A DNA stretch of 64,000 bases. Origin: Solirubrobacter soli DSM 22325. Lineage in GTDB: Bacteria > Actinomycetota > Thermoleophilia > Solirubrobacterales > Solirubrobacteraceae. Shown in pieces: positions 5,419-64,000 of the stretch. The DNA is taken from NCBI RefSeq assembly GCF_000423665.1, contig NZ_AUIK01000020.1:62001-126000 (forward strand), read 5' to 3'. Position numbers and translations under genes: made by a program. How positions within the stretch are numbered: position 1 is the stretch's first letter; each line of letters opens with the position of its first letter. The notes under the pieces were generated by a model. That model did not search any database, was not told the DNA's origin, and saw nothing but the letters and a program-made list of their open reading frames with translations.

Positions 5419-5976
5419 CTACGCGACGGGGACAGCGGCGGCGGTTGCTGAGCGCTCACGTTTGCGGGCACCCGCTGGGATAAGCGCCGCGAGCGTGAGG
5501 ACGGCGAAACCGATGCCACTGAGCAGCAGGGCAAAGCCCATGACGATCGCGAAGGTGGCCACGCGTTCGGCGAAGAAGGCGGTGTTGAGCGCAGTCGTCA
5601 GCGCGGTCTCGGTGACCCAGATCTGACGCGCCTGGTTGGCGACCGGCTTCTTGGTCTGCGGGTCGACGGCCGCCAGGGCCTTGTCGTCGGTGGGGTTGCC
5701 CTTGGCGTCGAGGTACTGGCCCATCTGCGAGTAGGTCTTGCCGGCGGTGGCCTCGAGCGTGTGGTGGCGCATGATGGCCGCGAACGCCTGCGCCTCGCTG
5801 CCCGTGTCGACCAGCTGCCCGGGGATCGTCGAGTCATCGGTGCCGACGATCTGCTCGGCGGCCAGATCGGTGCGCACCTGGCTACGCCCGTTGAACCCGG
5901 TGAAGATGGCGCCGATGCCGAAGGCGATGAGCACGATGCTGGCGGCGATGCCGCCGTACTGGAGGAGCTTGCGCAT
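5419..5976 (-). CDS. Two-helix membrane protein of unknown function, copy 1
   Basis: A 185-residue protein with one hydrophobic helix at residues 8-28, a soluble domain of about 105 residues, and a second helix near 140-162, ending in a basic Ala-rich tail. The topology suggests an extracytoplasmic loop between two membrane anchors. About two thirds of residues are identical to the protein at 51570-52124, including the N-terminal YGGIAASIVLIAFGIGAI block and TALTTALNTA. Start ATG 5976 has AAGGAG 7 nt upstream. I do not recognise a function. A palindrome (6071-6087) lies about 95 bp upstream and recurs upstream of the paralogue, which points to shared stress control. Confidence 0.85.
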   Translation of the reverse strand: MRKLLQYGGIAASIVLIAFGIGAIFTGFNGRSQVRTDLAAEQIVGTDDSTIPGQLVDTGSEAQAFAAIMRHHTLEATAGKTYSQMGQYLDAKGNPTDDKALAAVDPQTKKPVANQARQIWVTETALTTALNTAFFAERVATFAIVMGFALLLSGIGFAVLTLAALIPAGARKRERSATAAAVPVA

Positions 5977-6070: not shown

Positions 6071-6087
6071 CTGCGGGAAAGCCGCAG
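6071..6087. promoter_or_regulatory. Palindromic operator candidate CTGCGG-GAAAG-CCGCAG
   Basis: Imperfect version of the palindrome TGCGGG-(3)-CCCGCA found perfectly at 51465-51479 and 61276-61290. It lies between the divergent two-helix protein gene (start 5976) and the ANTAR gene (start 6178). All three sites lie upstream of stress or redox genes. Confidence 0.5.
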
Positions 6088-6177: not shown

Positions 6178-6774
6178 ATGAGCTATCACGACACCGATCA
6201 CCTGCGGGTCCTGATCGCCAATGAGCGCAGGGATCGCCTTGCGCTCGTCGCGCCGATCGTGGCTGCCCTGGGGCACGAAGTGATCGCGCGCGAGATCGAT
6301 GTCGCCGACGTGGGTGCGGTGACCGCGCGAGAACGGCCCGACGTCGCGCTCGTCGGCCTCGGTGAGAGCTCTCAGCACGCCCTGGACCTGATCGACAAGA
6401 TCGTGCATGAGGCTGCCTGCCCGGTCATCGTCCTTCTGCACGCGCGCGATCCGGCGTTCATCAAAGAGGCGTCCAAGCGTGGCGTCTTCGCCCATATCAG
6501 CGACGCGGACGTCGAGGACTGGCAGAGCTCGATCGACATCGTGCTGCGCCGCTTCGCCGAGTACCACGCCCTCGAAGGCGCATTCGGACGGCGCGCGCTG
6601 ATCGAACGCGCCAAGGGCATCCTCATGGAGCGCCATGGGATCGGCGAGGCGGAAGCTTTCGCACTGCTGCGCGACCACTCCCGGATCTCCAACCGCAAGC
6701 TGATCGACCTGGCTACCGCCATCGTCGACGGACATCGGCTGCTACCCAAAGGTTCAGTCGGCGTGCCGCAGTGA
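6178..6774 (+). CDS. ANTAR-domain response regulator (AmiR/NasT type)
   Basis: The protein is 198 residues if started at ATG 6178; an in-frame ATG at 6133 would add 15 unusual residues. The N-terminal ~120 residues look like a receiver fold (LRVLIANERR start, PDVALVGLGE and CPVIVLLHARD strands) but lack the usual acidic-pocket pattern, so phosphorylation is uncertain. The C-terminal ANTAR helix bundle begins near ALIERAKGILMERHG and continues through EAFALLRDHSR. ANTAR proteins bind tandem hexaloop hairpins in nascent RNA and prevent termination. No target gene is evident in the window. It is divergent from the two-helix membrane protein gene. Confidence 0.88.
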   Translation: MSYHDTDHLRVLIANERRDRLALVAPIVAALGHEVIAREIDVADVGAVTARERPDVALVGLGESSQHALDLIDKIVHEAACPVIVLLHARDPAFIKEASKRGVFAHISDADVEDWQSSIDIVLRRFAEYHALEGAFGRRALIERAKGILMERHGIGEAEAFALLRDHSRISNRKLIDLATAIVDGHRLLPKGSVGVPQ

Positions 6775-6784
6775 CCGCTCGTGC

Positions 6785-7901
6785 TCAGCCAGGGGTGGCA
6801 CCGGCCGGCAGCGCCGCGCAGGCGCGCGCGAACTCGTCGACCGCCGCCCAGTCGGTGAAGTCATAGTCCCGGCTGGCATCGGTCGAATGGTCTTGGCGCT
6901 TCATCAGCAGGCGCGTCGCGAAGTCGTACTCGCGATATTGGTCGAACCGGCTGTCGGAGAGCCCGTGCGGATGCTCGCTCTCGGGCTGCAGGCGCATAGG
7001 TCGACGACGTTGATCAGGCGCACGCGCAACTCTGGAGGTGGTGGCGCCGGAGCGCCGCGGCGGCGACGGTCTCGAGCGTCGGGATGTCCCCCGCGCAGGC
7101 CACGATCACGTTGACGTAGTCGCGCGAGCGCAGGCAGTGGTCGGCCGACGACCTTGAGTCCGGTCCAGCCCTTCGGCGTGCGCAGGACGATCATCGGCCA
7201 TGCCGGTCGCCTGGTCTCTCCCGCGCGTGCGCGTAGTCGGATCCCGGCGGTGTCGTCGGCGACCTCGTCCAGTGTGGCCGCCGTCAGCTGGTGCATGGCC
7301 TCGGGCTCTGAGTCCTCGACGAACCGGGGCGCATGGCCGTAGCCCTACAGCAACGCTCGCAGCTCGCGCTCTCCGATCCGCGCCGGCACCGTTGGGTTGG
7401 CGATCTTGTGGCCGATGAGGTGCAGCACCGGCAACACCGCGCCGTCGCGTGCGGCGTTGAGGAACTTGTCCGCGTGCCAGCTCGCGGCGAGCGGGCCGGT
7501 TTCGGCCTCCCCGTCGCCGATGAGCAGCACTTCGCTGTAGGTCCCGTCGAGGTAGGTGTTCGCGACGAGGCCATGTCAGCCGTGGCCGGGACCAGTCACG
7601 TACAGCACGCCGAGGTCACGTTCGCGGATCAGCCGGTTCAGATGCGCGTACACGAAGTTCAGCCCGGTGTCGTGCCCCAGTGCCCGAGCAGCCGCGGCTT
7701 GACGTTCTCCATCGTGAGCGGCTCGCGCAGCAGGGGTTGGCAAGCAGGTAGATCTGCTCCGACCGAGAGGTAGTTCGCCGCGCGCCAGTAGCCGTCCAGC
7801 ACGGACAGTTCCTCGGCCGAGAGCGGCTGCGCGAGCGGGACGGTCGGGGTGAGAAGGTCGGTCGTGCGGCTCCTGTCGGGTGGCGGCGTCGACGCGCCCA
7901 T
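6785..7901 (-). pseudogene. Phosphoketolase (Xfp/Xpk) relic
   Basis: Short minus-strand stretches in different frames match phosphoketolase in order. They are [13 protein letters not shown] and [10 protein letters not shown] near the N-terminus, [15 protein letters not shown] then [26 protein letters not shown] with GHKIANPTV in the middle, IVLRTPKGWTG, and VRLINVVDL plus MRLQPESEHPHGLSD. Intact enzymes run to about 800 residues (2.4 kb); here about 1.1 kb remains, with at least three internal deletions and several frameshifts. The last ~50 codons (6785-6940) do not look like phosphoketolase and may come from another gene. Phosphoketolase cleaves xylulose-5-P or fructose-6-P to acetyl-phosphate. 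The relic sits among stress genes. Confidence 0.88.
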
Positions 7902-47078: not shown

Positions 47079-47151
47079 CGTTCCGACTGTATTCGCCGGA
47101 AGGGGCGATTTTCGCGAGTCGCGCGACGACGCGGAGAACTACGGATGGCAA

Positions 47152-47228: not shown

Positions 47229-48128
47229 GTGCCCACCATGCTCATCGGTGTCGACGCCACCAGCCGCTCTGAGGACGCCATCGCGTTCGCACGGCAACTC
47301 GCGCCGGCCACAACGGGCGACGTCGTCGTCGCCACGATCATCCCGCGATCCGCCGAACTCGGATCCCCTGCGCGTCATGCAGCGCACGAGACGGTCAACC
47401 GCATGAGCGGCCTGCTCGCCGGCGTCGAGTTGCAGCGCGTCCACACGGCAGTGATCGCCGAGCGCAGTGCGCCACAAGGTCTGCACCTGCTGGCGGCGGC
47501 CGAGTCCGCATCGCTGGTCGTCGTCGGCTCCACGCACACCGGTCCGCTCGGTCGCGTCCGTCCTGGCAGCACGTCGGAGCGGCTGCTCGCCGGCGCGCCC
47601 TGCGCCGTGGCGGTCGTCCCGCTCGGGTACCGGACGGGGTCCGACCCGCCGATCAGCCGGATCGGCGTCGCCTACGACGGCTCCGCCGAGGCCAAGAACG
47701 CGCTCGACCTCGGGGTCACCGCGGCCCGAGCGCTCGGGGCCGCGCTCGACATCATCTCCGTCGTCCCTTCGGACGTCTACGGCGCGCCCGCCCTGATGGC
47801 CGGCCCGAGCTACATCGTGGTCGCCTCGGACGTGGTGGCGGACATCCGCGCGGATCTCGACGCCGCCAAGGCCGGGCTTCCGTCCGACGTGCCGACGCGA
47901 GGGATCGTGCTCGAAGGCCGCCCCTGGCGCGAGCTGGCGGAAGCGAGCGAGAAGCTCGACCTGCTGATCGTCGGCTCGCGCGGGTACGGGCCGCTCCACG
48001 CCGTCATTCTCGGCGGGACGAGCGGACCGCTGATGCGCGAGGCACACTGCCCGGTCGTAGCGCTGCCGCGCGGGGCCGGGAGCGATCTCGCCGAGCTCTT
48101 CGCGTCGCAAACGGCGACGACAGCCTGA
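47229..48128 (+). CDS. Tandem universal stress protein (two USP domains)
   Basis: A 299-residue protein from GTG 47229 with AAGGAG 6 nt upstream. Domain 1 (residues 4-140) starts MLIGVDATSRSEDAIAFARQ and ends with VVVGSTHTGPLGRVRPGSTSERLL, the ATP-binding G-2x-G-9x-G(S/T) pattern. Domain 2 (from ~150) starts RIGVAYDGSAEAKNALDLG and ends LLIVGSRGYGPLHAVILGGTSG. Both domains thus look ATP-binding. Tandem USPs of this kind are hallmark dormancy or hypoxia genes in actinobacteria. Confidence 0.94.
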   Translation: MPTMLIGVDATSRSEDAIAFARQLAPATTGDVVVATIIPRSAELGSPARHAAHETVNRMSGLLAGVELQRVHTAVIAERSAPQGLHLLAAAESASLVVVGSTHTGPLGRVRPGSTSERLLAGAPCAVAVVPLGYRTGSDPPISRIGVAYDGSAEAKNALDLGVTAARALGAALDIISVVPSDVYGAPALMAGPSYIVVASDVVADIRADLDAAKAGLPSDVPTRGIVLEGRPWRELAEASEKLDLLIVGSRGYGPLHAVILGGTSGPLMREAHCPVVALPRGAGSDLAELFASQTATTA

Positions 48129-50135: not shown

Positions 50136-51419
50136 TCAACCTGCCAGGGCGACTCGGGTCTGCCCGGCGAACGCGCCGGCGGTGGACGGGCGATCGGCGG
50201 GATCCTTGGCCATCGCCGCGGAGATCGCCGCCACAAGGCGTTCCGGCAGGTCGGGCCGGACGGACTGGAGGTCAGGGACAGGTTCGTACACGTGCGCCCA
50301 CAGGTTGTCGAGGTCGCTCTCGTGGTCGAAGGGCAAGTGGCCCGTGAGTGAGTGGAAGAGCACGCACGCGAGCGACTACACGTCGGCTCGTGCGTCGACC
50401 GACCGCCCGCGGGCCTGCTCGGGGGCCATGTAGTCCGGCGTGCCGATGGCCAATCCGGTACCGGTCAGCTCCGCACCCGCCGCGCGGTGCTTGCTCACGC
50501 CGAAGTCCGTGAGGTACGCGCGCTCTTCGGCGGCGCGCTGCCGGATCAGGATGTTCGCGGGTTTGACGTCGCGATGCACGAGCCCTGACGAGTGCGCTTC
50601 GTCGAGCGCGCCCGCGACCTGTTCGACGAGCGCGACCGCGCGCGGCGGCTCGAGCGCGCCCTGGGAGCGCAGCAGTGCACGGAGGTCCGTGCCCTCGATG
50701 AACCGCATCGTGACGTAGAGCCGTCCTCGTTCCTCGCCTGCGTGGAACACCGTCACGAGGTTCGGGTGGTCGAGCGATGCCGCCAGGCGGCACTCGCGCT
50801 CGAACCGCGCGCGGAAGACGTCGTCGCGCGCGTGCGCCGGCGCGATCAGCTTGAGCGCGACGCGCCGGTCGAGCGCGAGGTCCGTCGCCGCGTAGACGAC
50901 GCCCATGCCGCCCTGGCCCGCGATGGCGTCGATCCGGTGCCCGGCGAACTCGGCGCCGATGCTCAGGTGCTCGTCGTCCGTCGCGGTCAAGAGCCGGGCT
51001 CCGAGCGTGGGATCGACGTAGCTGCGGCCGTTCGCGGCCGCCCGCACCGCATCCACGAGCGACGACTCGGCGCCTTCCTTGAGCACGTAGCCACGGGCGC
51101 CCGCCGCCAACGCCGCCCGCGCCATCGAGGGATCGTCCTCCATGGTCAGCACCACCACGGCGCTGCCCGGAGCCAGTGCGAGGAATCGGTCGATCGCCGA
51201 GATCGTCGGCGTGCCCGGCATGTTGAGGTCGAGCACGACCACGGCCGGCCGCAGGTCGCGAGTGCGATGGAGCGCGGTCTCGACGTCCGAGGCTTCGGCG
51301 ACCACGGTGAGGCCGGGTTCCGCGTCAAGCACCATCCGCAGGCCGTGGCGGACCATCGTGTGGTCGTCGGCGAGCACGATCTCGATCCGCTCACGGTCGC
51401 CGGAGGACGGGTGCGACAT
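50136..51419 (-). pseudogene. Response-regulator receiver fused to a Ser/Thr protein kinase, interrupted by one TAG
   Basis: From ATG 51419 the frame encodes a NarL-type receiver (ADDHTMVRHGLRMVL; phosphorylatable Asp in VVLDLNMPG; VVLTMED; Lys in YVLKEGAE). The DPTLGARLL linker that normally precedes a LuxR HTH follows, and then instead a Ser/Thr kinase: GQGGMGVVY, VALKLI, HRDVKPANIL, DFGVSK and APEQARG. A TAG at 50378-50376 replaces the expected Tyr codon in DVYSLACVLF. The same frame then continues for 79 clean kinase codons to a stop at 50136. Without it the protein would be 427 residues. The truncated 347-residue product keeps the whole receiver and kinase subdomains I-VIII. Recent inactivation, a sequencing error or functional truncation are the options. 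Confidence 0.88.
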
Positions 51420-51464
51420 AGCAGTGCCGATTGAATCGCATCGCGAGGTTCTGCTCTCGGAGTC

Positions 51465-51479
51465 GCGGGTTTCCCGCAG
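51465..51479. promoter_or_regulatory. Palindromic operator candidate GCGGG-TTT-CCCGC
   Basis: A perfect palindrome (core 51465-51477, then AG) about 90 bp upstream of the two-helix protein gene at 51570 and 46 bp upstream of the divergent receiver-kinase gene. The same element is at 61276-61290 and, imperfectly, at 6071-6087. Confidence 0.55.
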
Positions 51480-51569: not shown

Positions 51570-52124
51570 ATGCGCAAGCTCTTCCAGTACGGCGGGATCG
51601 CCGCCAGCATCGTGCTGATCGCCTTCGGGATCGGCGCCATCTACATGGGCATCGACGGACGCAGTTATGTCCGCGACAACCTCGCCGCCGAACACATCGT
51701 CGGCACCCCCGACTCCACGATCCCCGGCCAGAAAGTCGACACCGGCACCGAGGCCCAGGCCTTCGCCAAAGTCATGCGCAAGCACACCCTCGAAGCCACC
51801 GGCGGCCAGACCTACGCCCAGATGGGCCGCTTCCTGGACAACAACGGCAAGCCCACCAACGACGAGAACGCCGCCGCCATCGACCCCAAGACCAAGCAGC
51901 CCGTCGAAAACGGCCTGCGCAACATGTGGGTCAACGAGACCGCGCTGACCACCGCCCTGAACACCGCCTACTTCGCCGAACAGGTCGCCACCTTCGCCAT
52001 CGTCATGGGCATCGCCCTGCTGCTCGCCGGCATCGGCTTCGGCATCCTCAGCCTCAACGCCCTGCCCGCCACCAACCGCAAGGAGGAACGCGCCCCGGCC
52101 ATGGCTGCGGTGCCTGCCGCCTGA
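51570..52124 (+). CDS. Two-helix membrane protein of unknown function, copy 2
   Basis: A 184-residue paralogue of the protein at 5419-5976, with the same YGGIAASIVLIAFGIGAI first helix (residues 8-28), the same soluble segment with DSTIPGQ and HTLEAT, and a second helix near 140-162. Start ATG 51570 has AAGGAG upstream; the longer open frame has no support. It is divergent from the receiver-kinase gene and convergent with the VIT transporter, with a strong hairpin between. The function is unknown. Confidence 0.88.
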   Translation: MRKLFQYGGIAASIVLIAFGIGAIYMGIDGRSYVRDNLAAEHIVGTPDSTIPGQKVDTGTEAQAFAKVMRKHTLEATGGQTYAQMGRFLDNNGKPTNDENAAAIDPKTKQPVENGLRNMWVNETALTTALNTAYFAEQVATFAIVMGIALLLAGIGFGILSLNALPATNRKEERAPAMAAVPAA

Positions 52125-53527: not shown

Positions 53528-54180
<653 letters not shown>

Positions 54181-54181
<1 letters not shown>

Positions 54182-55404
54182 TGCGCCGGCGGCTGATCGC
54201 CACCACGGCGCTGATCGCGCTCGTGGCGACGCTCGTCCTCGGGATCCCGCTCGGACTCGTCGAGAGTTCCCGCGCGCGCGGCGACGCGCTCAGCCGGCTC
54301 GAGCGCGAGGCCGACGACATCGCCGCCGCCGTCGACGATCGCGCGGCCAAAGGGCTCACCGCCGCCGCGCTCGCCCCGTGGCTGCGCGCAGGACATGCCG
54401 CCGACGTCGTCTCCGGCACGACACGGATCAGGGTCGGGCGGATACCGGTGGGTGGCGTCCTCTCCGCCCGCTCCGGCGCGACCCAGGGCGTTCGCGTCAC
54501 CGTCTACGCCTCCGCCGCCGAGGTCACCCGCCGACGCCGCCAGATCTGGCTGCTCGTCGGCGGTCTCGCCCTGGCCGGCACCGCCGCCGCCGTCGCACTC
54601 GCGGTGCTGCAGGCGCGCCGCTTCACCCGCCCGCTCGACCGCCTCGTCGCCACCTCCGGCCGGCTCGGCCAGGGCGACTTCTCCGCCCGCACCGGCCACC
54701 TCGACCTCCCCGAGTTCGACCGCGTCGCCACCGCACTCGACGCCGCCGCCGTCCAGATCGCCCAGCTCGTCGGCCGCCAGCGCGAGTTCACCGCCAACGT
54801 CTCCCACCAGTTGCGCACCCCGCTGACCGCCATGCGCCTGCGCCTCGACGAGCTCAGCACCCTCCAAGACCCCGCCGCCGCCCGCGACGAGCTCGACGCC
54901 ACCCTGCGCGTCGCCGACCGCCTCGAGCGCACCGTGACCGAACTGCTCGCCCTCGCCCGCGCCGGCGACATCGGTCGCCCGACCGATGTCGATCTTGCGA
55001 GCGTCGCTCGCGATCACACGGCGACCTGGAAGCCCGTGTACGCACGTGCAGGCCGCACGCTGGTCCTCGAGGCAACGGTCCCGCTGCCCGCCCGCGTCAG
55101 CCCCGGCGGTGTCGCGCAAGCGCTCGACGTCCTGCTCGAGAACGCCCTCCACCACGGATCCGGGACCACACGGCTGCAAGCGACCGTGACCAACGGGCGC
55201 AACGTGCTCACCATCGAGGACGAGGGTGCGGGTGTCCCCGTCGCACTGGAGACGGCGATCTTCGAGCGCAACGTCTCGACCGCCGGCTCGACCGGCCTCG
55301 GGCTCTCGCTGGCACGCGCTCTCGTCGAAGCCGACGGCGGCCGTCTGATCCTCGTCCGCCCTCGCCCGGCGCGCTTCGAGATCATCCTTCCGCCGCGCTC
55401 CTGA
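54181..55404 (+). CDS. Membrane histidine kinase partner of the OmpR regulator
   Basis: A 407-residue protein. First helix at residues 5-25, a short sensor segment of ~90 residues, and a second helix near 122-140. HAMP follows (ARRFTRPLDRLVATSGRLGQGDF), then HisKA with the phospho-His in FTANVSHQLRTPLTAM near 210. The ATPase domain has LLENALHHG, EDEGAGVP and TGLGLSLARALVEADGG. The small extracytoplasmic loop could sense envelope stress or a small ligand. Start ATG 54181 overlaps the regulator stop. Confidence 0.94.
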
Positions 55405-56988: not shown

Positions 56989-57427
56989 TCACCGCCTCGC
57001 GCGCACCCGCCATCGGCGCAGCTCGTCGACGCCCCACACGATGAACGGGAACGTCGTGAGCACCGCCAGGTCGCCGAGCCCGAGCGCCCGCGTACCGAAC
57101 ACCGACTGCGGCGGCGGGGGGTAGATCAGCGCCGCCGCGAAGACGAGCTCGAAGGCGATACCCCAGAGCAACAGCGGGTTGCTGGTGAACCCGATCGCAC
57201 GCGACGAGGACCGTTCGACGCGCGAGGCGAACGCGGTGCCGACCTGGCAGGCGACGATCCCCGCGAAGGTCATCGTCGTCGCGCGCAGCCAGTCGTCGTG
57301 GAGCGGCAAGCCGGCGCTCGTGTCGTCGCCGGGATGCCAACCGGCGCGGAGCAGCGTGAAGGTCAGCGAGAACGCGCTCTGGCGGCTCGGCCTCCAGGAG
57401 CTCGACGGACGTCTGTTCGGTATCCAT
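56989..57427 (-). pseudogene. P-type cation-transport ATPase relic (5' end joined to 3' end)
   Basis: ATG 57427 starts MDTEQTSVELLEAEPPERVLA, typical of the N-terminus of a Ca/Mg-type P-ATPase. Immediately afterwards a different frame carries the last ~125 residues of the same family: FTLLRAGWHPGDDTSAGLPL, TMTFAGIVACQVGTAFASR, NPLLLWGIAFELVFAAALIY and FPFIVWGVDELRR, stop 56989. About 700 residues, including the phosphorylation and ATP sites, are gone. The start overlaps the stop of the FAD oxidoreductase as TGATG, so it was once the next gene in that operon. Confidence 0.85.
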
Positions 57428-58473
57428 CAGACGGGCTGTGACGCCGTCTGTGCCCAGCGCGCGAGGTACGGGCCGAGGTGGGCGCCGGGAAGCTTGTCCG
57501 GTCCCTGTCCGCCGTTGAGGAGCAGCGGGTCGCCTTTGCCGGTGTGCAGCGTCGCGCGAAGCTCGGGCTCGAACCGCTTGGGTGTGGTGGCATGGCCGTA
57601 CAGCGCGGCGACGGACTGGGCGGCGATGTCGGCCTGCTGGCACGCGATCTCGCCCTGCTTGACCGGAAAGTCCGTCGCATCGCCGATGGCGTACGTCCCC
57701 CGCAACCCGACGACATGCCCGAAGCTGTCGACCGGGATCAGGCCGTACAGGGTTGTCGTGGGCACGCCCGCAATCTCCGGCCCACGGACGAGCGGCACGG
57801 AGACGACCCGGTCGACCGTGAGTGGGTCGAACCGTTGGCCGCCGCCGGCGAACTCGATGCCGGCTTGTTCGAGCGCCGCAGCCACAGCGTCGCTGGCGGC
57901 CGCGCCGAACCGCTCGAGCGGGCGGTCCTCGGGGGTGAAGAGCGAGACCGAGACCGCGTCATGTCCGTTCGCGGTGAGCAACGCGGCCTCGTAGACCGGG
58001 AGGGTCCAGCCGGCGCGCGAGGGGATGACGAAACCGACACGCCGTACGTCGCCGGACTCGATCTCATCACGCAGGTGGCGGAAGCCTTCCGCGCCCGCGG
58101 CGTCTCCGAGATGGATGGCATCGTCGAAGGTGGGGAGGGTCCTCGCTCCCAGCGCCAGGACGAGCGTGTCGTAGCCCAACGCGTCACCGGTCCGATCGAT
58201 GATCCGGCGGTGGTCGTGATCCACCGCGCGCACGGCGGCGGTCACGAGCGAGAACCCCAGCTCGCTCGCGAACTGGCTCAACGGGCGCCGCCAATAGCGG
58301 CCGACACCGAGCGGGGCGGCGACGAGTGCCGGTCGCAGGACGAAGTCGGGATCGGGCGCGACGACGGTGAGCTGGATGGCATCACCCGCCAGTGCCCGCA
58401 GCGCGAGGACGAACTCGAGCGCGGCGACGCCGCCACCGGCGACGACGACCTGAGGCTGTCGATTGCGGGTCAT
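57427..58473 (-). CDS. FAD-dependent oxidoreductase (SQR/NDH-2-like), paralogue 1
   Basis: A 348-residue protein with an FAD-binding start (VVVAGGGVAALEFVLAL), a second dinucleotide region near residue 145 (VGFVIPSRAGWTLPVYEAAL), and the C-terminal FAD motif TYAIGDATDFPVKQGEIACQQAD. The fold is that of sulfide:quinone reductases and type II NADH dehydrogenases, but the catalytic Cys pair of SQR is not evident. TACGGT ends 6 nt before ATG 58473, predicting a leaderless mRNA. It is followed by the ATPase relic and belongs to a set of four with 60030, 61348 and 62487. Confidence 0.87.
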   Translation of the reverse strand: MTRNRQPQVVVAGGGVAALEFVLALRALAGDAIQLTVVAPDPDFVLRPALVAAPLGVGRYWRRPLSQFASELGFSLVTAAVRAVDHDHRRIIDRTGDALGYDTLVLALGARTLPTFDDAIHLGDAAGAEGFRHLRDEIESGDVRRVGFVIPSRAGWTLPVYEAALLTANGHDAVSVSLFTPEDRPLERFGAAASDAVAAALEQAGIEFAGGGQRFDPLTVDRVVSVPLVRGPEIAGVPTTTLYGLIPVDSFGHVVGLRGTYAIGDATDFPVKQGEIACQQADIAAQSVAALYGHATTPKRFEPELRATLHTGKGDPLLLNGGQGPDKLPGAHLGPYLARWAQTASQPV

Positions 58474-58538: not shown

Positions 58539-60026
58539 CTACGGAGCCGGAATCGCCGCCGAGACCGTCGTCCCGTCGGCTGATGAGGCGATCTCGAGGT
58601 CGCCGCGCAGCATTGCTACGCGTTCGCGCATCCCGGCCAGGCCGAACCCGTCCGCCGGACGCTCAGGATCGAAGCCGTGGCCGTCGTCGGTCACGCGCAG
58701 GCGCACGACGCCCGAGTCATCGCCGATGGCGATCGCGACCCTGGTCGCGTGGGCGTGCCGGATCGCGTTGCCCAGCGCTTCTTGGACGATGCGATAGATC
58801 GCCGTCTCCAGGTCCGGCGCGTAGCGCTCCGGCGGCAGGCGCACGGTCGCATGCACGTCGACGGCCTCCCGCTCGGTGGCGCGGGTGACGAGGCCTTCGA
58901 TGGCGGCGGCGAGCCCCAGATCGTCGAGTGCCGCGGGCCGCAGCTCGCGGATCAGCCCACGCAGGCTGTCGATCTCGCCTTCGATCCGCACGACCGCGTC
59001 GCGGACCGCGCTGTGCAACCGGCCGGGATCATCGATCCGCGACGCGGCGACGAGCAGCATCCGCAGTCCGCCGAGACCTTGCAAGGTGTCGTCGTGGAGC
59101 TCGCGCGCCCAGCGCTTGCGTTCGTTCTCGGCCGCGTCCATCGCGTCGTGCACGCGTTGCTCCTCCACGCTGCGGGCCGTGGCGACGGCGGTCGCGGCGC
59201 TGGCGGCGAACGCCTGCAGCAGTGCCGCGTCGTCGGGGTCCGAGTGTGCGCCGAAGGCGACCAGCATCCCGAGCGTCCGGCCGTGGTAGAGCAACGGCAC
59301 GAGCGTGCCGCCGGCTGCGGCGAGGCCGAACGGATCGCGGAGCGCGGCGGGGACCTCGCCTGCTTCGGCCGCCGCGACCATCCCGCTCGCCTCGCGCAGG
59401 AAGATCACGAGGCCGCGCGCCTCGAGGATCCCGCAGCCGCGCTCGACGATCAACCGCAGGATCCGGTTCAGATCGGTCTCGCCGCCGAGGGCGCGAGCGA
59501 TCGCGGTCGTGGCCTCGAGGCGGCGTACGAGCCCCTCGAGCTGTACGCGCCGGCGCTCGCTCTCCTTCAGGTTGCGGGCGTTGTCGATCGCGGTCGCGGC
59601 CCACTCCGCCAGCGCGACGACGGCATCCTGGTCCGCGAGCGTGAACGGCTCGCCGTCCGCTTTGTCGCAGAGGTAGAGGTTGCCCCACGCCTCGTCGTGC
59701 AACATCACGGGCACGCCGAGGAAGCTCTCCATCGGTGGATGGCCCGGCGGGAAGCCCGCGGACGCTGGATGGTCGCGGACCGCGTCGACGCGCACCGGGT
59801 GGGGATTCGCGATGACGGCGCCGAGAAGGCCCGCGCCGTGGGGCGGCGCACCGATCGCCCGGCGCTCCGCTTCCGTGACGCCGTGGGTCACGAAGCGCTC
59901 GAGTCCCGATCGGTGCTCGTCGAGGATGCCCAGCGCGGCGTAGCGCGCGCCGGTCATCTCGGCCGCCGCCGCGAGAAGGCGGTGCAGGACCTCCTCGACT
60001 TCGATGTCGGTTGCGACCGCGGTCAT
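58539..60026 (-). CDS. Double-GAF histidine kinase (DevS/DosT-like)
   Basis: A 495-residue cytoplasmic kinase. GAF 1 at about residues 5-150 (MTGARYAALGILDEHRSGLERFVTHG, PMESFLGVPVML, WGNLYLCDKADGEPFT) matches the first GAF of mycobacterial DevS-type sensors. GAF 2 is at about 175-290. HisKA_3 has its phospho-His in WARELHDDTLQGLG near 310; the NarL-type ATPase has VQEALGNAIRHAHA and FGLAGMRERV. No cognate NarL/LuxR regulator with an HTH lies in the window. Start ATG is 3 bp after the FAD oxidoreductase gene at 60030, so the two are co-expressed. The haem-binding His of DevS cannot be assigned by eye. Confidence 0.92.
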   Translation of the reverse strand: MTAVATDIEVEEVLHRLLAAAAEMTGARYAALGILDEHRSGLERFVTHGVTEAERRAIGAPPHGAGLLGAVIANPHPVRVDAVRDHPASAGFPPGHPPMESFLGVPVMLHDEAWGNLYLCDKADGEPFTLADQDAVVALAEWAATAIDNARNLKESERRRVQLEGLVRRLEATTAIARALGGETDLNRILRLIVERGCGILEARGLVIFLREASGMVAAAEAGEVPAALRDPFGLAAAGGTLVPLLYHGRTLGMLVAFGAHSDPDDAALLQAFAASAATAVATARSVEEQRVHDAMDAAENERKRWARELHDDTLQGLGGLRMLLVAASRIDDPGRLHSAVRDAVVRIEGEIDSLRGLIRELRPAALDDLGLAAAIEGLVTRATEREAVDVHATVRLPPERYAPDLETAIYRIVQEALGNAIRHAHATRVAIAIGDDSGVVRLRVTDDGHGFDPERPADGFGLAGMRERVAMLRGDLEIASSADGTTVSAAIPAP

Positions 60027-60029
60027 GGC

Positions 60030-61217
60030 TCAGTGAAGGTGCAGGACCTCGACGCTGCGGCTTCCGGCGTCGCCGATGTCGACGTTGACCGGCATTCCGG
60101 GAGCGCGGCCGGTCTCTTCGTCGAGCGCTTCCAGGTAGCCGGCGAGCTCGCGTCCGGCGATCTTGGTCGGCGGCCACCACAGTGCACGGCCGGCCACGTC
60201 GTCGCCCGCGGCGGGATCGTGGCGGAGGAATCGTGCCCAGCGCTCGGTCAGCAGCATGCCGCGCAGCACCGGTTTGAACGGCTCGGCGTCGACCTGGGCC
60301 CCGGCGCGGCGCGCGACGTCGGCGGCCACGGCGTCCGCCTGCTGGCAGGCGATGCCGCCCTGCTTGATCGCGAACGCGGTGATGTCGCCCGCGGCGTAGA
60401 CGTCGTCGACGCCTTCGACGCGACCGTGCTCGTCGGTGACGAGGAAGCCTTCGGCGTTCGCCGGGAGGCCTGGGATCGCCGGGCCTTCGAGTCGAGGCAG
60501 CGTGACCAGGCGGTCGACGTCGATCTGCTCGCCGGTCGCGGTCAGACGGATCCGGCCGTGCGTCATCAGCTCGATGTCGGTTCCGACGTGCACCCTCACG
60601 CCGGCCTCGCCGAGCAGCTTTGCCACTTCCGCGGAGGCCTTGCTGCCGAAGATCGCCAACGGCGCCGTCTCGGGCGTGACGACGTGCACCTCGAGCGTCG
60701 CGCACATCTCATACGCGCGTTCCGCGAGCATCAGCGCCAGCTCGTACAGCGGCAGCGGCCACGTGCTCCCGGATGGGACGACGAACGCGAGACGCTTCAG
60801 ATATCCCTCTTCGACGTCCTGCACGATGCCGTGGAGACGTTCCTGATCCGTCGGCGACCCCGTGAACATCGTCGCCGTCTTGAACGGCTCGACCGGGCGG
60901 GCGCCTGACGCCATCAGCAGCATGTCGTAGGCCAGCCGTTCACCTTCGGTCGTCACGACCTCGCGCGCCGTCGCGTCGACGCGCGCCAGCCGGCCGCGGA
61001 AGTGCTCGAAGCCGGCGTCGGTCGCGATGCGCTTGAGCGGGTAGGTCGGCGCGCCGCCGGCGGCGAACGGCGACAGCACGCTCAGAGGGCGGTAGGTGAG
61101 GTTCAGCTCGGGTGCGAGGAGCGTCGTCGTGACGCGATCGCCGGCCAGCCGGCTCAAGGCGAGGGCGGCTTCCAGCGCGGCGGGTCCGCCACCGGCGATC
61201 AGGACGTTGGTGGGCAT
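60030..61217 (-). CDS. FAD-dependent oxidoreductase (SQR/NDH-2-like), paralogue 2
   Basis: A 395-residue protein: FAD motif NVLIAGGGPAALEAALAL, middle motif LAFVVPSGSTWPLPLYELAL near residue 145, end motif VYAAGDITAFAIKQGGIACQQAD near 285, then a C-terminal segment with ALWWPPTKIAGREL. This WWPP(T/H)KI motif recurs in 61348 and, as WWPQGKV, in 62487. TAGCGT ends 6 nt before ATG 61217, predicting a leaderless mRNA. It forms an operon with the GAF kinase. The palindrome at 61276-61290 lies in its promoter. Confidence 0.88.
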   Translation of the reverse strand: MPTNVLIAGGGPAALEAALALSRLAGDRVTTTLLAPELNLTYRPLSVLSPFAAGGAPTYPLKRIATDAGFEHFRGRLARVDATAREVVTTEGERLAYDMLLMASGARPVEPFKTATMFTGSPTDQERLHGIVQDVEEGYLKRLAFVVPSGSTWPLPLYELALMLAERAYEMCATLEVHVVTPETAPLAIFGSKASAEVAKLLGEAGVRVHVGTDIELMTHGRIRLTATGEQIDVDRLVTLPRLEGPAIPGLPANAEGFLVTDEHGRVEGVDDVYAAGDITAFAIKQGGIACQQADAVAADVARRAGAQVDAEPFKPVLRGMLLTERWARFLRHDPAAGDDVAGRALWWPPTKIAGRELAGYLEALDEETGRAPGMPVNVDIGDAGSRSVEVLHLH

Positions 61218-61223
61218 GGTGCA

Positions 61224-61341
61224 ACGCTAGGTGCCCGCAGCGCTTGATTCGTCCGGGACAAGCGCGGTTCATGTGTGCGGGAAACCCGCAGTCTGTCCGC
61301 ATGTAGCGACGGATGCCGGGGCCGGTCGGCGCGCCTAGGTT
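61224..61341. promoter_or_regulatory. Divergent promoter region with two start-proximal -10 elements
   Basis: Minus strand: TAGCGT (61229-61224), 6 nt before ATG 61217. Plus strand: TAGGTT (61336-61341), 6 nt before ATG 61348. Both fit TANNNT placed for transcription to begin at or beside the start codon. The palindrome lies between them, 46 bp from each -10, so one bound protein could serve both genes. Confidence 0.6.
61276..61290. promoter_or_regulatory. Palindromic operator candidate TGCGGG-AAA-CCCGCA
   Basis: A perfect 15-bp palindrome in the centre of the divergent FAD oxidoreductase promoters. It is identical in the core to 51465-51477. Confidence 0.6.
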
Positions 61342-61347
61342 GAGGGC

Positions 61348-62475
61348 ATGCCGGACCGTTCCGAACTGCTGATCGCCGGTGGTGGGCCGGCAGCGCTCGA
61401 AGGCGCCATGGCGGTCCAACGCCTGGCCGGCGAGCGCGTCCACATCACCCTGCTGAGCGATCGCGAAGACTTCGTCTACCGCCCCGTGTCCGTCGCCGAG
61501 CCCTTCGGACTCGCGCCGCCCGAGCGTTTCTCTCTCCGTGGCATCGCGGCCGAGCGAGGGATCGGCTTCAGGGTCGGCCCGTTGCGTGCGGTCGATGCCG
61601 AGGGCCATCGGGTCCTGTGCGACGACGAGTGGGTGCCCTACGACACGCTGCTCCTCGCGATCGGTGCCCGGCCGGAGGAGGCTGTCCCTGGCGCGCTGAC
61701 GTTCCGCGGCCCGCAGGACAGCGCGCGGCTGCGCGATGCGCTCGGGCGTCTCGGGCCCGACCCGTGCCGGGTCGCGTTCGTGTCAGGCCCGGAGACCGGG
61801 TGGACGTTGCCCATGTACGAGCTCGCCTTGATGACCGCGCACTGGAGCGCGACGCGGCCCGCGTCGATCGAGGTGTGGGTGGTGACCTACGAGCATCGCC
61901 CGCTGAGCGCCTTTGGCGACCGGGCCGCGGCCGACGTCGCGCAGCTGTTGGACGAAGCGGGCGTGCGCCTCTGGACCGGCGCCTTCGTCGAGGCCGTCGA
62001 GGACGGCCGCCTCTGGGTCAGCATCGAAGGCGGGCTGCCGGTCGACCTGGCGGTCGCCTTGCCGCGGCTCGCGGGCCCCGCGATCCCCGGGCTCCCATGC
62101 GACTCCGCCGGGTTCGTCGAGGTCGATGAGCATGGGCGGGTGCGTGGCGTGGACGACGTGTACGCGGCGGGTGACATGACGAGCCGGCCGCTGAAGCAGG
62201 GCGGCCTGGCCACGCAGCAGGCGGACATCGCCGCGGCCGCGATCGCCGCCGCCGCCGGCGCGGACGTCGAGGCCGAGCGCTACCGCCCCGTCCTGCGCGC
62301 GATGCTGCTCACCGGCGGCCGGCCGCGCTATTTGCGGCACGGCGCAGGTGACCGTGGCCATGCCTCCGATGACGCGCCGTGGTGGCCGCCGCACAAGATC
62401 TCCGGCCGCGAGCTCGCCCCGTACCTCACCGCCCACCCCGAATTCAGGCTCGAGTCAGCTCAACCCACTCCGTGA
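61348..62475 (+). CDS. FAD-dependent oxidoreductase (SQR/NDH-2-like), paralogue 3
   Basis: A 375-residue protein: LLIAGGGPAALEGAMAVQRL at the start, VAFVSGPETGWTLPMYELAL near residue 140, VYAAGDMTSRPLKQGGLATQQAD near 275 and PWWPPHKISGRELAPYL near the end. The Cys found before QQAD in paralogues 1 and 2 is Thr here. Start ATG 61348 with TAGGTT 6 nt upstream. Its stop overlaps a GTG of the next paralogue's frame, so the two are translationally close. Confidence 0.88.
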   Translation: MPDRSELLIAGGGPAALEGAMAVQRLAGERVHITLLSDREDFVYRPVSVAEPFGLAPPERFSLRGIAAERGIGFRVGPLRAVDAEGHRVLCDDEWVPYDTLLLAIGARPEEAVPGALTFRGPQDSARLRDALGRLGPDPCRVAFVSGPETGWTLPMYELALMTAHWSATRPASIEVWVVTYEHRPLSAFGDRAAADVAQLLDEAGVRLWTGAFVEAVEDGRLWVSIEGGLPVDLAVALPRLAGPAIPGLPCDSAGFVEVDEHGRVRGVDDVYAAGDMTSRPLKQGGLATQQADIAAAAIAAAAGADVEAERYRPVLRAMLLTGGRPRYLRHGAGDRGHASDDAPWWPPHKISGRELAPYLTAHPEFRLESAQPTP

Positions 62476-62486
62476 AGGTGCCGCAC

Positions 62487-63659
62487 ATGTCCGCCCCGCT
62501 CCACGCTCCCCCACTCCGCGTCCTCGTCGCCGGCGGTGGCGTGGCGGCCCTCGAGACCGTGCTTGCGCTGCGTGTGCTCGCGGGTTCGCGGGTGAGAATC
62601 GAGATGCTGGCGCCGACGGGCGAGTACGTCGAGCGCCCGTCCTCGGTCCTGTCGCCGTTCAGCGGTGCTCCCGCACCGCGGGTGCCGCTCGACGAGTTGT
62701 CGGCGCTCGGCGTCGTCCGCCACCGCGGCGCGCTTGCCGCCGTCGACGCGGACCATCGCGAGGTGCGCACGACCGACGGCGGCCGGCTGACGTATGACCG
62801 CCTCGTGGTCGCTCCCGGCGCCCACGCCATCGACGGTGTGCCGGGCGCGGTCACGTTCCGCGGTTCGATCAGTGCCGGCGCGGTCGAGGGGTCGATCCGC
62901 GGTGCGACCTCGCGCGTCGTCTTCGTGGCACCAGCCGGGGCGGGCTGGATCCTGCCGCTCTACGAGCTCGCTCTGCTGACCGCGCACGAGTTCCCGGATG
63001 GCCCGGACGTCACCGTCGTCACTCCTGAGCCGCGGCCACTCGACGTCTTCGGCCCGGTCGCATCGGATGCGCTCGCACGCCTGCTTCACCGGGCCGGGAT
63101 CGAGTTCATCGGCCGCACCCACGCGGTCGAGTACGTCGACGGCGCGCTCGCGATCAGCGATGGCTCGCTCATCGCCGCCGACGCGGTGATCTCACTCCCG
63201 CGCATGCAGGGTCGCTTCATCGAAGGCCTCCCGGGCGACGAACGCGGGTTCATCCCGACCAACGCCAACGCCCGCGTCATCGGAGTTCCGCACGTGTTCG
63301 CCGCCGGCGATGTCACGACCGAGCCGATCAAGCAAGGCGGCCTCGCCACACAACAGGCCGACGCCGCCGCCGAGGCGATCGCGGCCGAGGTCGGCGCGGC
63401 GCTGATCCCGCGCCCGTATCGGCGCATCCTGCGCGGTGTTCTGCTCACGGGCGAGCGCCCGCTCTACCTGCGCCGTGACCTCGACGAGGCCGACGGCATC
63501 ATCCGCCCACTGCGCGGCGTGCCGCCAGGAGTCGCTCGCAGCCAGCTCTGGTGGCCGCAGGGCAAGGTCGCGGGCCGGTACTTGACCTCCTTCGTCGCCG
63601 AGGGCGGGAGGCCCGGCGCGCCCCTTGCCGACCGCCCTCCCGCGACCAACCACGTCTGA
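62487..63659 (+). CDS. FAD-dependent oxidoreductase (SQR/NDH-2-like), paralogue 4
   Basis: A 390-residue protein from ATG 62487 with AAGGTG 6 nt upstream; GTG 62472 overlaps the previous stop and is an alternative. Motifs: VLVAGGGVAALETVLALRVL, VVFVAPAGAGWILPLYELAL, FAAGDVTTEPIKQGGLATQQAD and LWWPQGKVAGRYL. I see no Cys anywhere in the chain, which rules out the SQR cysteine chemistry. It probably oxidises NAD(P)H or reduces a quinone or partner protein; the electron donor and acceptor are unknown. Confidence 0.87.
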   Translation: MSAPLHAPPLRVLVAGGGVAALETVLALRVLAGSRVRIEMLAPTGEYVERPSSVLSPFSGAPAPRVPLDELSALGVVRHRGALAAVDADHREVRTTDGGRLTYDRLVVAPGAHAIDGVPGAVTFRGSISAGAVEGSIRGATSRVVFVAPAGAGWILPLYELALLTAHEFPDGPDVTVVTPEPRPLDVFGPVASDALARLLHRAGIEFIGRTHAVEYVDGALAISDGSLIAADAVISLPRMQGRFIEGLPGDERGFIPTNANARVIGVPHVFAAGDVTTEPIKQGGLATQQADAAAEAIAAEVGAALIPRPYRRILRGVLLTGERPLYLRRDLDEADGIIRPLRGVPPGVARSQLWWPQGKVAGRYLTSFVAEGGRPGAPLADRPPATNHV

Positions 63660-63703: not shown

Positions 63704-64000
63704 ATGCGCGACTACCGCCCACAGTCGGAGAAGTCCCGCTTCGATCGCGTCCTGCAGGCGTTCGCGCAGACCCGGTTGGGCGGCTGGCTGTTCATCAACG
63801 TCCTGCCCACGGTCGACCGGCCGCTGCTGCGGTTGAGCCGCGGCCGCATCTCGACCGGGATGGGACAGACCTACGTGCTGTTGCACGTGCGCGGGGCGAA
63901 GAGCGGCATCGAGCGAACCGTCCCGCTCCTGGGCACCAAGTGGGGTGACGCGATCCTGCTGGTCGCATCCAAGGCCGGTGCCGCGCACCACCCCGCGTGG
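63704..64000 (+). CDS. F420-type (DDN-like) nitroreductase family protein, 3' end beyond window
   Basis: The frame is open from ATG 63704 to the window edge (99 codons). GGWLFINVLPTVDRPLLRLSRGR, then a TYVLLHVRGAKSGIERTVPL segment and GDAILLVASKAGAAHHPAW match the deazaflavin-dependent nitroreductase (DDN/Rv3547) family, where the RGAKSG and ASKAG...HPAW blocks bind F420. A TACGGT lies 9 nt before the ATG. It follows the fourth FAD oxidoreductase by 44 bp, adding to the redox character of this region. Confidence 0.88.
   Translation, partial: MRDYRPQSEKSRFDRVLQAFAQTRLGGWLFINVLPTVDRPLLRLSRGRISTGMGQTYVLLHVRGAKSGIERTVPLLGTKWGDAILLVASKAGAAHHPAW

What the first reader, a model, noticed from the sequence alone, without database searches (positions are those of the whole stretch)
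61276..61290. A shared palindrome TGCGGG-NNN-CCCGCA marks three stress/redox promoters
Perfect copies occur at 61276-61290 and 51465-51479 and an imperfect one at 6071-6087. They lie upstream of divergent FAD oxidoreductases, of the two-helix protein copy 2 with the receiver-kinase gene, and of the two-helix protein copy 1 with the ANTAR gene. I saw it nowhere else. Distances to start codons are similar (about 60-100 bp). This suggests a small regulon analogous in content to the mycobacterial DosR regulon but with a different operator.
Basis: partly seen in the sequence, partly recalled or inferred. Interest (0 to 1): 0.72.

Follow-up and report, generated by a model that had tools for sequence, protein, structure and literature searches.

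The report
Operator of a Solirubrobacter DosR-like regulon
The short palindrome is a real control switch that soil bacteria of the Solirubrobacter group place in front of oxygen- and redox-stress genes, most likely read by a relative of the tuberculosis dormancy regulator DosR through a DNA signature not found in the literature searched here.

Summary
Only 61276-61290 is a perfect TGCGGG-N3-CCCGCA; 51464-51478 and 6072-6086 each have one mismatch. With a free centre the pattern is at or below chance (76 vs 112 control hits genome-wide). With the AAA centre kept (TGCGGGAAACCCGCA, up to 1 mismatch) it occurs 6 times in 9.3 Mb (0.46 expected, 0 control hits), always intergenic.

The genus is Solirubrobacter. 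The site is the symmetric form of one operator built from two interchangeable half-sites, A = TGCGGG and B = TCCGTAG, around a fixed G-NNN-C centre. Around 103 devR-type loci the A/A, A/B and B/B forms peak only at half-site spacings 5, 6 and 7, upstream of devR, devS, FAD oxidoreductases, universal stress proteins and the two-helix protein. The commonest position is 65-66 bp before a leaderless start.

Best explanation: the binding site of a NarL-family DevR-like response regulator paired with DosS/DosT-like haem-GAF kinases, one encoded in the window (58539-60026). DosR and OsdR boxes are absent, and the recognition helix differs at the DosR base-contact residues. Binding is inferred, not shown.

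The parts
61276..61290 (.). Operator, A/A form (TGCGGGAAACCCGCA), shared by two divergent FAD-oxidoreductase operons; centre 65 and 66 bp from the two start codons
51464..51478 (-). Operator, A/A form with one mismatch (TGCGGGAAACCCGCG), between the two-helix gene (99 bp) and the receiver-Ser/Thr-kinase gene (52 bp)
6072..6086 (+). Operator, A/A form with one mismatch (TGCGGGAAAGCCGCA), between two-helix copy 1 (103 bp) and the ANTAR gene (99 bp)
47130..47145 (+).
61336..61341 (+). -10-like TAGGTT, 6 bp before ATG 61348: putative leaderless promoter
61224..61229 (-). -10-like TAGCGT, 6 bp before the ATG at 61217: putative leaderless promoter
60030..61217 (-). FAD-dependent pyridine-nucleotide-disulphide oxidoreductase (Pyr_redox_2), first gene of the leftward operon
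58539..60026 (-). DosS/DosT-like sensor: GAF, HisKA_3, HATPase. GAF matches DosT 2vzw E=1.9e-39 and DevS 2w3d E=1.7e-34; His of the GFPPGHPPM motif aligned. Starts 4 bp after the FAD gene
57427..58473 (-). second FAD oxidoreductase of the leftward operon
61348..62475 (+). FAD oxidoreductase, first gene of the rightward operon
62487..63659 (+). FAD oxidoreductase, second gene of the rightward operon
63704..64000 (+). F420H2-dependent quinone reductase (PF04075), 5' part; continues beyond the window; third gene of the rightward operon
51570..52124 (+). two-helix membrane protein, copy 2; family-wide target of the operator
5419..5976 (-). two-helix membrane protein, copy 1
6178..6774 (+). ANTAR-domain protein, possible target on the other side of operator 6072
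50376..51419 (-). receiver (54% identical to the DevR-like regulator) fused to a Ser/Thr kinase domain, no DNA-binding domain; possible target
47229..48128 (+). universal stress protein (two Usp stretches), target of the hybrid operator

Best explanation
The palindrome is the operator of a DevR/DosR-type two-component regulon in Solirubrobacter and its family. Haem-GAF kinases of the DosS/DosT type sense low oxygen, NO/CO or redox state and phosphorylate a NarL-family response regulator (about 219 aa; copies on contigs C8 and C12 of this genome). The regulator's GerE-domain dimer binds the operator. The operator has two half-sites, each either A (TGCGGG) or B (TCCGTAG), on either side of a fixed G-NNN-C centre (usually AAA). 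A/A, A/B and B/B forms are interchangeable at the same kinds of promoter. Bound about 65 bp upstream of leaderless TANNNT promoters (further upstream where there is a leader), it activates, probably by class-I contact with RNA polymerase, FAD oxidoreductases, universal stress proteins, the two-helix membrane protein, F420-type reductases, fermentation enzymes, cytochrome bd, and in many genera its own devR/devS genes. Shown: the sites, their enrichment, spacing, positions, gene content and co-occurrence. Inferred: that this regulator binds them, that it activates, and that oxygen or redox state is the signal.
For: Genome: 6 sites at up to 1 mismatch against 0.46 expected and 0 control, all intergenic. 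In 1.66 Mb around 103 devR-type loci: A/A 18 upstream, 0 coding, 0 control; A/B 50 upstream, 3 coding, 0 control; B/B 17 upstream, 2 coding, 0 control. An unbiased palindrome search in these loci ranks B/B first and A/A second and third. Spacing test: TGCGG-Nk-CCGCA peaks only at k=5, TGCGG-Nk-ACGGA only at k=6 (42 upstream, 37 loci), TCCGT-Nk-ACGGA only at k=7, as expected of one dimer reading two kinds of half-site. Targets include devR itself (e.g. L195, L205, L179, L188, L267) and devS (L199, L250, L261). Co-occurrence: in devR+ genomes A/B has 311 vs 82 control hits, in devR- genomes 54 vs 45 (Fisher p=2e-6); A/A has 96 vs 23 and 12 vs 9 (p=0.025). Within the genus, G001 and G006 lack the close regulator (best 41% identity), the two-helix gene and the A/A site together. 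Sensor GAF matches DosT and DevS at E 1e-34 to 1e-39 with the haem-His region aligned (His149/His147 as ligand: PMC4082495). Fixed distance of 65-66 bp and a TANNNT element.
Against: No binding, expression or mutant data. The regulator's best solved relatives are NarL and VraR, with DevR third (E 5e-24), and no DevR-specific family model was available, so 'DevR-like' rests on gene neighbourhood and the sensor. In this genome none of the devR copies has a recognisable operator directly in front. Many NarL-type paralogues exist (21 matches in this genome). Several devR neighbourhoods carry no clear site, and the A/B form was derived partly from the loci on which it was counted; the whole-genome scans are the more independent test. 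devR- genomes tend to be smaller or less complete.
Confidence: 0.83

Rival explanations
1. The operator is real but is read by another regulator, for example the OmpR-type response regulator at 53528-54181 with its kinase at 54181-55404, or another NarL-type paralogue.
For: The OmpR-type pair lies near A/A sites in the window and in S. pratensis (L180), and its kinase near a site in G020 (L043). The genome has 21 NarL-type matches.
Against: The OmpR-type regulator is found in only a few of the devR neighbourhoods examined (window, L180, L183, L197), while operators occur in many more loci; OmpR-type regulators usually bind direct repeats (general knowledge), not this inverted repeat; devR and devS promoters themselves carry the operator in many genera.
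Confidence: 0.1
2. Two different regulators bind A/A and B/B sites separately, and the targets merely overlap.
For: A and B half-sites differ in sequence; in S. phytolaccae and G002 devR carries B/B while other genes carry A/A.
Against: Hybrid A/B sites are the commonest form (50 upstream) and have a fixed spacing of 6, exactly between 5 and 7. They occur before the same genes at the same distances.
Confidence: 0.05
3. The palindrome acts as an RNA or DNA hairpin (terminator, leader or repeat element) rather than as a protein operator.
For: A/A can form a 6-bp stem with a 3-nt loop; a one-mismatch variant (TGCGGGAAAACCGCA) in some MAGs sits near group II intron maturase fragments.
Against: Sites lie upstream of inferred start points, often between divergent genes, and the equivalent hybrid form cannot pair with itself. 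The maturase-linked variant is a different, repeated element.
Confidence: 0.01
4. The three window copies are a chance coincidence.
For: With a free centre, counts do not exceed chance.
Against: The AAA-centred form exceeds expectation more than tenfold in the genome, all sites are intergenic, and it recurs at orthologous promoters in other genera.
Confidence: 0.01

Closest known systems
DosR/DevR regulon of Mycobacterium tuberculosis (DosS, DosT, DosR)
   Same: NarL-family regulator beside haem-GAF histidine kinases; universal stress proteins, F420-type reductase and an AAA/phosphotransferase-like gene in the neighbourhood; operator in front of the regulator gene itself in many genera
   Different: Operator is TGCGGG/TCCGTAG-based, not GGGACTTNNGNCCCT (consensus as given in PMC6448022). 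DosR base-contact residues Lys179, Lys182, Asn183 (PMC4082495) align with Arg, Glu, Thr/Ser. FAD oxidoreductases and the two-helix protein are prominent targets.
OsdR/OsdK regulon of Streptomyces coelicolor
   Same: DevR-type system outside mycobacteria with universal stress protein and pyruvate phosphate dikinase targets (PMC5069765)
   Different: OsdR consensus AGGGCCGATCGGCCCT conforms to the M. tuberculosis box and OsdR binds M. tuberculosis targets; that sequence is absent from the promoters here.
NarL/VraR-type response regulators
   Same: Receiver plus GerE domain; best matches among solved structures
   Different: Different operators (general knowledge) and no DosS-type haem GAF sensor.

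Membership tests
DosR/DevR-type regulon | Cognate haem-binding GAF histidine kinase of the DosS/DosT type | tested here: met
   GAF of window 58539-60026 matches 2vzw E=1.9e-39 and 2w3d E=1.7e-34, with the His of FPPxHPPM aligned; met by sequence, haem binding itself not tested
DosR/DevR-type regulon | NarL/FixJ-family response regulator encoded with the kinase | tested here: met
   Response_reg plus GerE; devR and devS adjacent on C8 and in many genera
DosR/DevR-type regulon | Regulator specifically orthologous to DosR rather than to another NarL-type protein | tested here: inconclusive
   PDB best hits NarL and VraR, DevR third; no tree with DosR was built
DosR/DevR-type regulon | DosR box GGGACTTNNGNCCCT or GGGAC-N4-GTCCC at target promoters | tested here: not met
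   None in the window; in 103 loci GGGAC-N4-GTCCC occurs only in coding DNA
DosR/DevR-type regulon | Recognition-helix base contacts Lys179, Lys182, Asn183 | tested here: not met
   Aligned residues are Arg, Glu, Thr/Ser; Arg and Glu invariant in the aligned family regulators
DosR/DevR-type regulon | Targets include universal stress proteins and redox/anaerobic functions | tested here: met
   USP, FAD oxidoreductase, F420H2 quinone reductase and phosphoketolase by Pfam; cytochrome bd and acetate kinase by inspection of sequence
DosR/DevR-type regulon | Induction by hypoxia, NO or CO | not testable with these tools
   No expression data
OsdR regulon | AGGGCCGATCGGCCCT operator | tested here: not met
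   16 coding and 0 upstream hits at up to 3 mismatches in 103 loci

The most novel reading that the evidence does not exclude
A whole order of Actinomycetota runs a DosR-like low-oxygen regulon through a rewired operator that mixes two unrelated half-sites (TGCGGG and TCCGTAG) in fixed geometry. One regulator would then read two distinct half-site sequences, with the mix perhaps tuning promoter strength or direction.
Probability: 0.7. Interest if true: 0.72.

Novelty: new variant of a known kind. Interest (0 to 1): 0.64.

Why it matters
It gives a concrete, testable operator and target list for a DosR-like oxygen/redox regulon in Solirubrobacterales, a soil group whose regulation is little studied; the library searched holds no paper with both DosR and Solirubrobacter and none with these operator sequences. 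It offers a natural case of operator rewiring while sensor and gene content stay DosR-like. The two half-sites in 5/6/7 spacing raise a sharp question of how one helix-turn-helix dimer reads two sequences. It also predicts a physiological role for the two-helix membrane protein, which has no recognised family.

Tried and rejected
Free-centre pattern TGCGGG-NNN-CCCGCA: not enriched, dropped. TGCGGR-NNN-YCCGCA: 13 places vs 10 control, not useful. B/B form with loose centre: above control in the genus, but the listed sites look mostly like background and include G001 and G006, which lack devR; the stricter form gives 6 vs 3 in this genome. DosR and OsdR boxes: absent from the promoters. Hairpin/terminator reading: rejected because hybrid sites cannot self-pair. 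OmpR-type regulator as the reader of the site: kept as a weak rival. The variant TGCGGGAAAACCGCA in genera g14 and g35 looks like a separate repeat next to group II intron maturases and inflates the A/A family count somewhat. NCBIfam gave no DosR-specific model; nearest are MctR/MctS, far below cut-off. No structure prediction was run, as it would not decide binding.

Full report
What is there. The window lies in contig C12 (62001-126000) of a 9.31 Mb Solirubrobacter genome. Genus-mates were identified from record titles and matching contig lengths as S. phytolaccae, S. taibaiensis and S. pratensis. The pattern with a free centre does not exceed chance. The three copies share an AAA centre, and in that form there are six sites in the genome at up to one mismatch: the three in the window, C12:142497, C8:100342 and C13:196356. 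Expectation is 0.46, the reversed control gives 0, and all six are intergenic. C12:142497 belongs to a recent duplication of the two-helix gene (98% identical) and is not independent. C13:196356 precedes a close paralogue (about 80% identical) of the oxidoreductase at 61348.

What it sits in front of. The sites precede FAD oxidoreductases (61217, 61348, C8, C13), the two-helix membrane protein (three copies), a universal stress protein on C8, an ANTAR gene and a receiver-kinase gene. The leftward operon from 61217 continues into a DosS/DosT-like sensor at 58539-60026, whose GAF domain matches DosT at E=1.9e-39 with the haem-His region aligned (ligand role of that His in PMC4082495). The rightward operon from 61348 ends in an F420H2-dependent quinone reductase. 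On C8 the site lies beside a DosS-like kinase and a NarL-family response regulator.

Conservation. Orthologues of the two-helix gene in other genera of the family carry versions of the same palindrome, mostly 90-122 bp upstream. The close response regulator is present in G000 and G002-G005 and absent (best 41% identity) in G001 and G006, which also lack the two-helix gene and the A/A site.

One operator, two half-sites. An unbiased search for palindromes in 103 non-redundant loci, nearly all devR-type neighbourhoods, put TCCGT-N7-ACGGA first and TGCGG-N5-CCGCA second. Expectation-maximisation on 180 upstream regions showed that the two are halves of one operator: hybrids such as TGCGGGAAACTACGGA are common before the same genes. 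Counting by spacing is decisive: A/A peaks only at 5, A/B only at 6, B/B only at 7. In 1.66 Mb the three forms have 18, 50 and 17 upstream hits against 0, 3 and 2 in coding sequence and none for reversed controls. In whole genomes of the family, A/B has 311 vs 82 control hits where the regulator is present and 54 vs 45 where it is absent. In the present genome the A/B form adds 47130-47145 of the window, 91 bp before a universal stress gene, and C13:204162, 65-66 bp before a receiver/USP/phosphoketolase run; reversed control 0.

How it probably works. In the FAD-oxidoreductase promoters the operator centre lies 65-66 bp from the start codon on both sides, and aligned promoters show T and A 12 and 11 bp and T 7 bp before the start codon, a TANNNT element expected of leaderless promoters. 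The site thus ends upstream of the -35 region, as for class-I activators. Other targets have the site about 90-105 bp away, as expected with a transcribed leader. The operator lies before devR and devS in several genera, which suggests autoregulation. I infer that DosS/DosT-like kinases phosphorylate the NarL-type regulator, which then binds and activates.

Comparison with the known. The gene content is that of a DosR regulon, but DosR and OsdR boxes are absent (consensus sequences in PMC6448022 and PMC5069765). The recognition helix reads R-T-V-E-(T/S)-H where DosR has K-T-V-K-N-Y, changing the three residues reported to contact bases (PMC4082495). It works like a DosR system; strict membership by operator and contact residues is not met, and orthology of the regulator to DosR was not settled. 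No paper in the searched library mentions DosR with Solirubrobacter or contains these operator sequences; the library is incomplete.

Limits. No binding or expression data exist here. Some devR neighbourhoods have no clear site, and the devR copies of this genome have none directly in front. Part of the A/A family count comes from an unrelated repeat near group II intron maturases.

Noticed in passing
window 50136-51419 (-): The receiver-Ser/Thr kinase gene is interrupted by an in-frame stop after ...SVDARADV; the kinase sequence reads on in the same frame beyond it, so it may be a pseudogene or a truncated protein. Its receiver is 54% identical to the DevR-like regulator but it lacks a DNA-binding domain.
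   Followed up: partly
window 7345-7901 (-): Short pieces resembling phosphoketolase, apparently remnants (read from sequence, not searched); an XFP gene beginning at L037:19160 lies downstream of a hybrid operator on contig C13.
   Followed up: partly
window 56989-57309 (-): Only the C-terminal part of a cation-transporting ATPase (Cation_ATPase_C) is present as a separate short gene.
   Followed up: no
window 5419-5976, 51570-52124; C12:142603-143154: Three copies of a two-helix membrane protein with no recognised family (weak sub-threshold DUF3185 match); one is a recent duplication carrying its operator.
   Followed up: partly
L035:14618-18502 and L039:1800-2444: Beyond the window's two ends, C12 carries another DosS-like kinase, an AAA/phosphotransferase-like gene with a truncated DevR-like receiver, and a second full DevR-like regulator (82% identical to that on C8).
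   Followed up: partly
L112, L114, L116: A repeat containing TGCGGGAAAACCGCA recurs in genera g14 and g35; L112 and L116 encode group II intron maturase fragments beside it; unrelated to the operator.
   Followed up: partly
L180:12521 and L037:9708: A conserved palindrome TGCGG-N5-CCGCA overlaps the start codon of a small membrane-protein gene (MPHLSELHG...); in L180 it lies about 100 bp from an OmpR-type regulator start.
   Followed up: no
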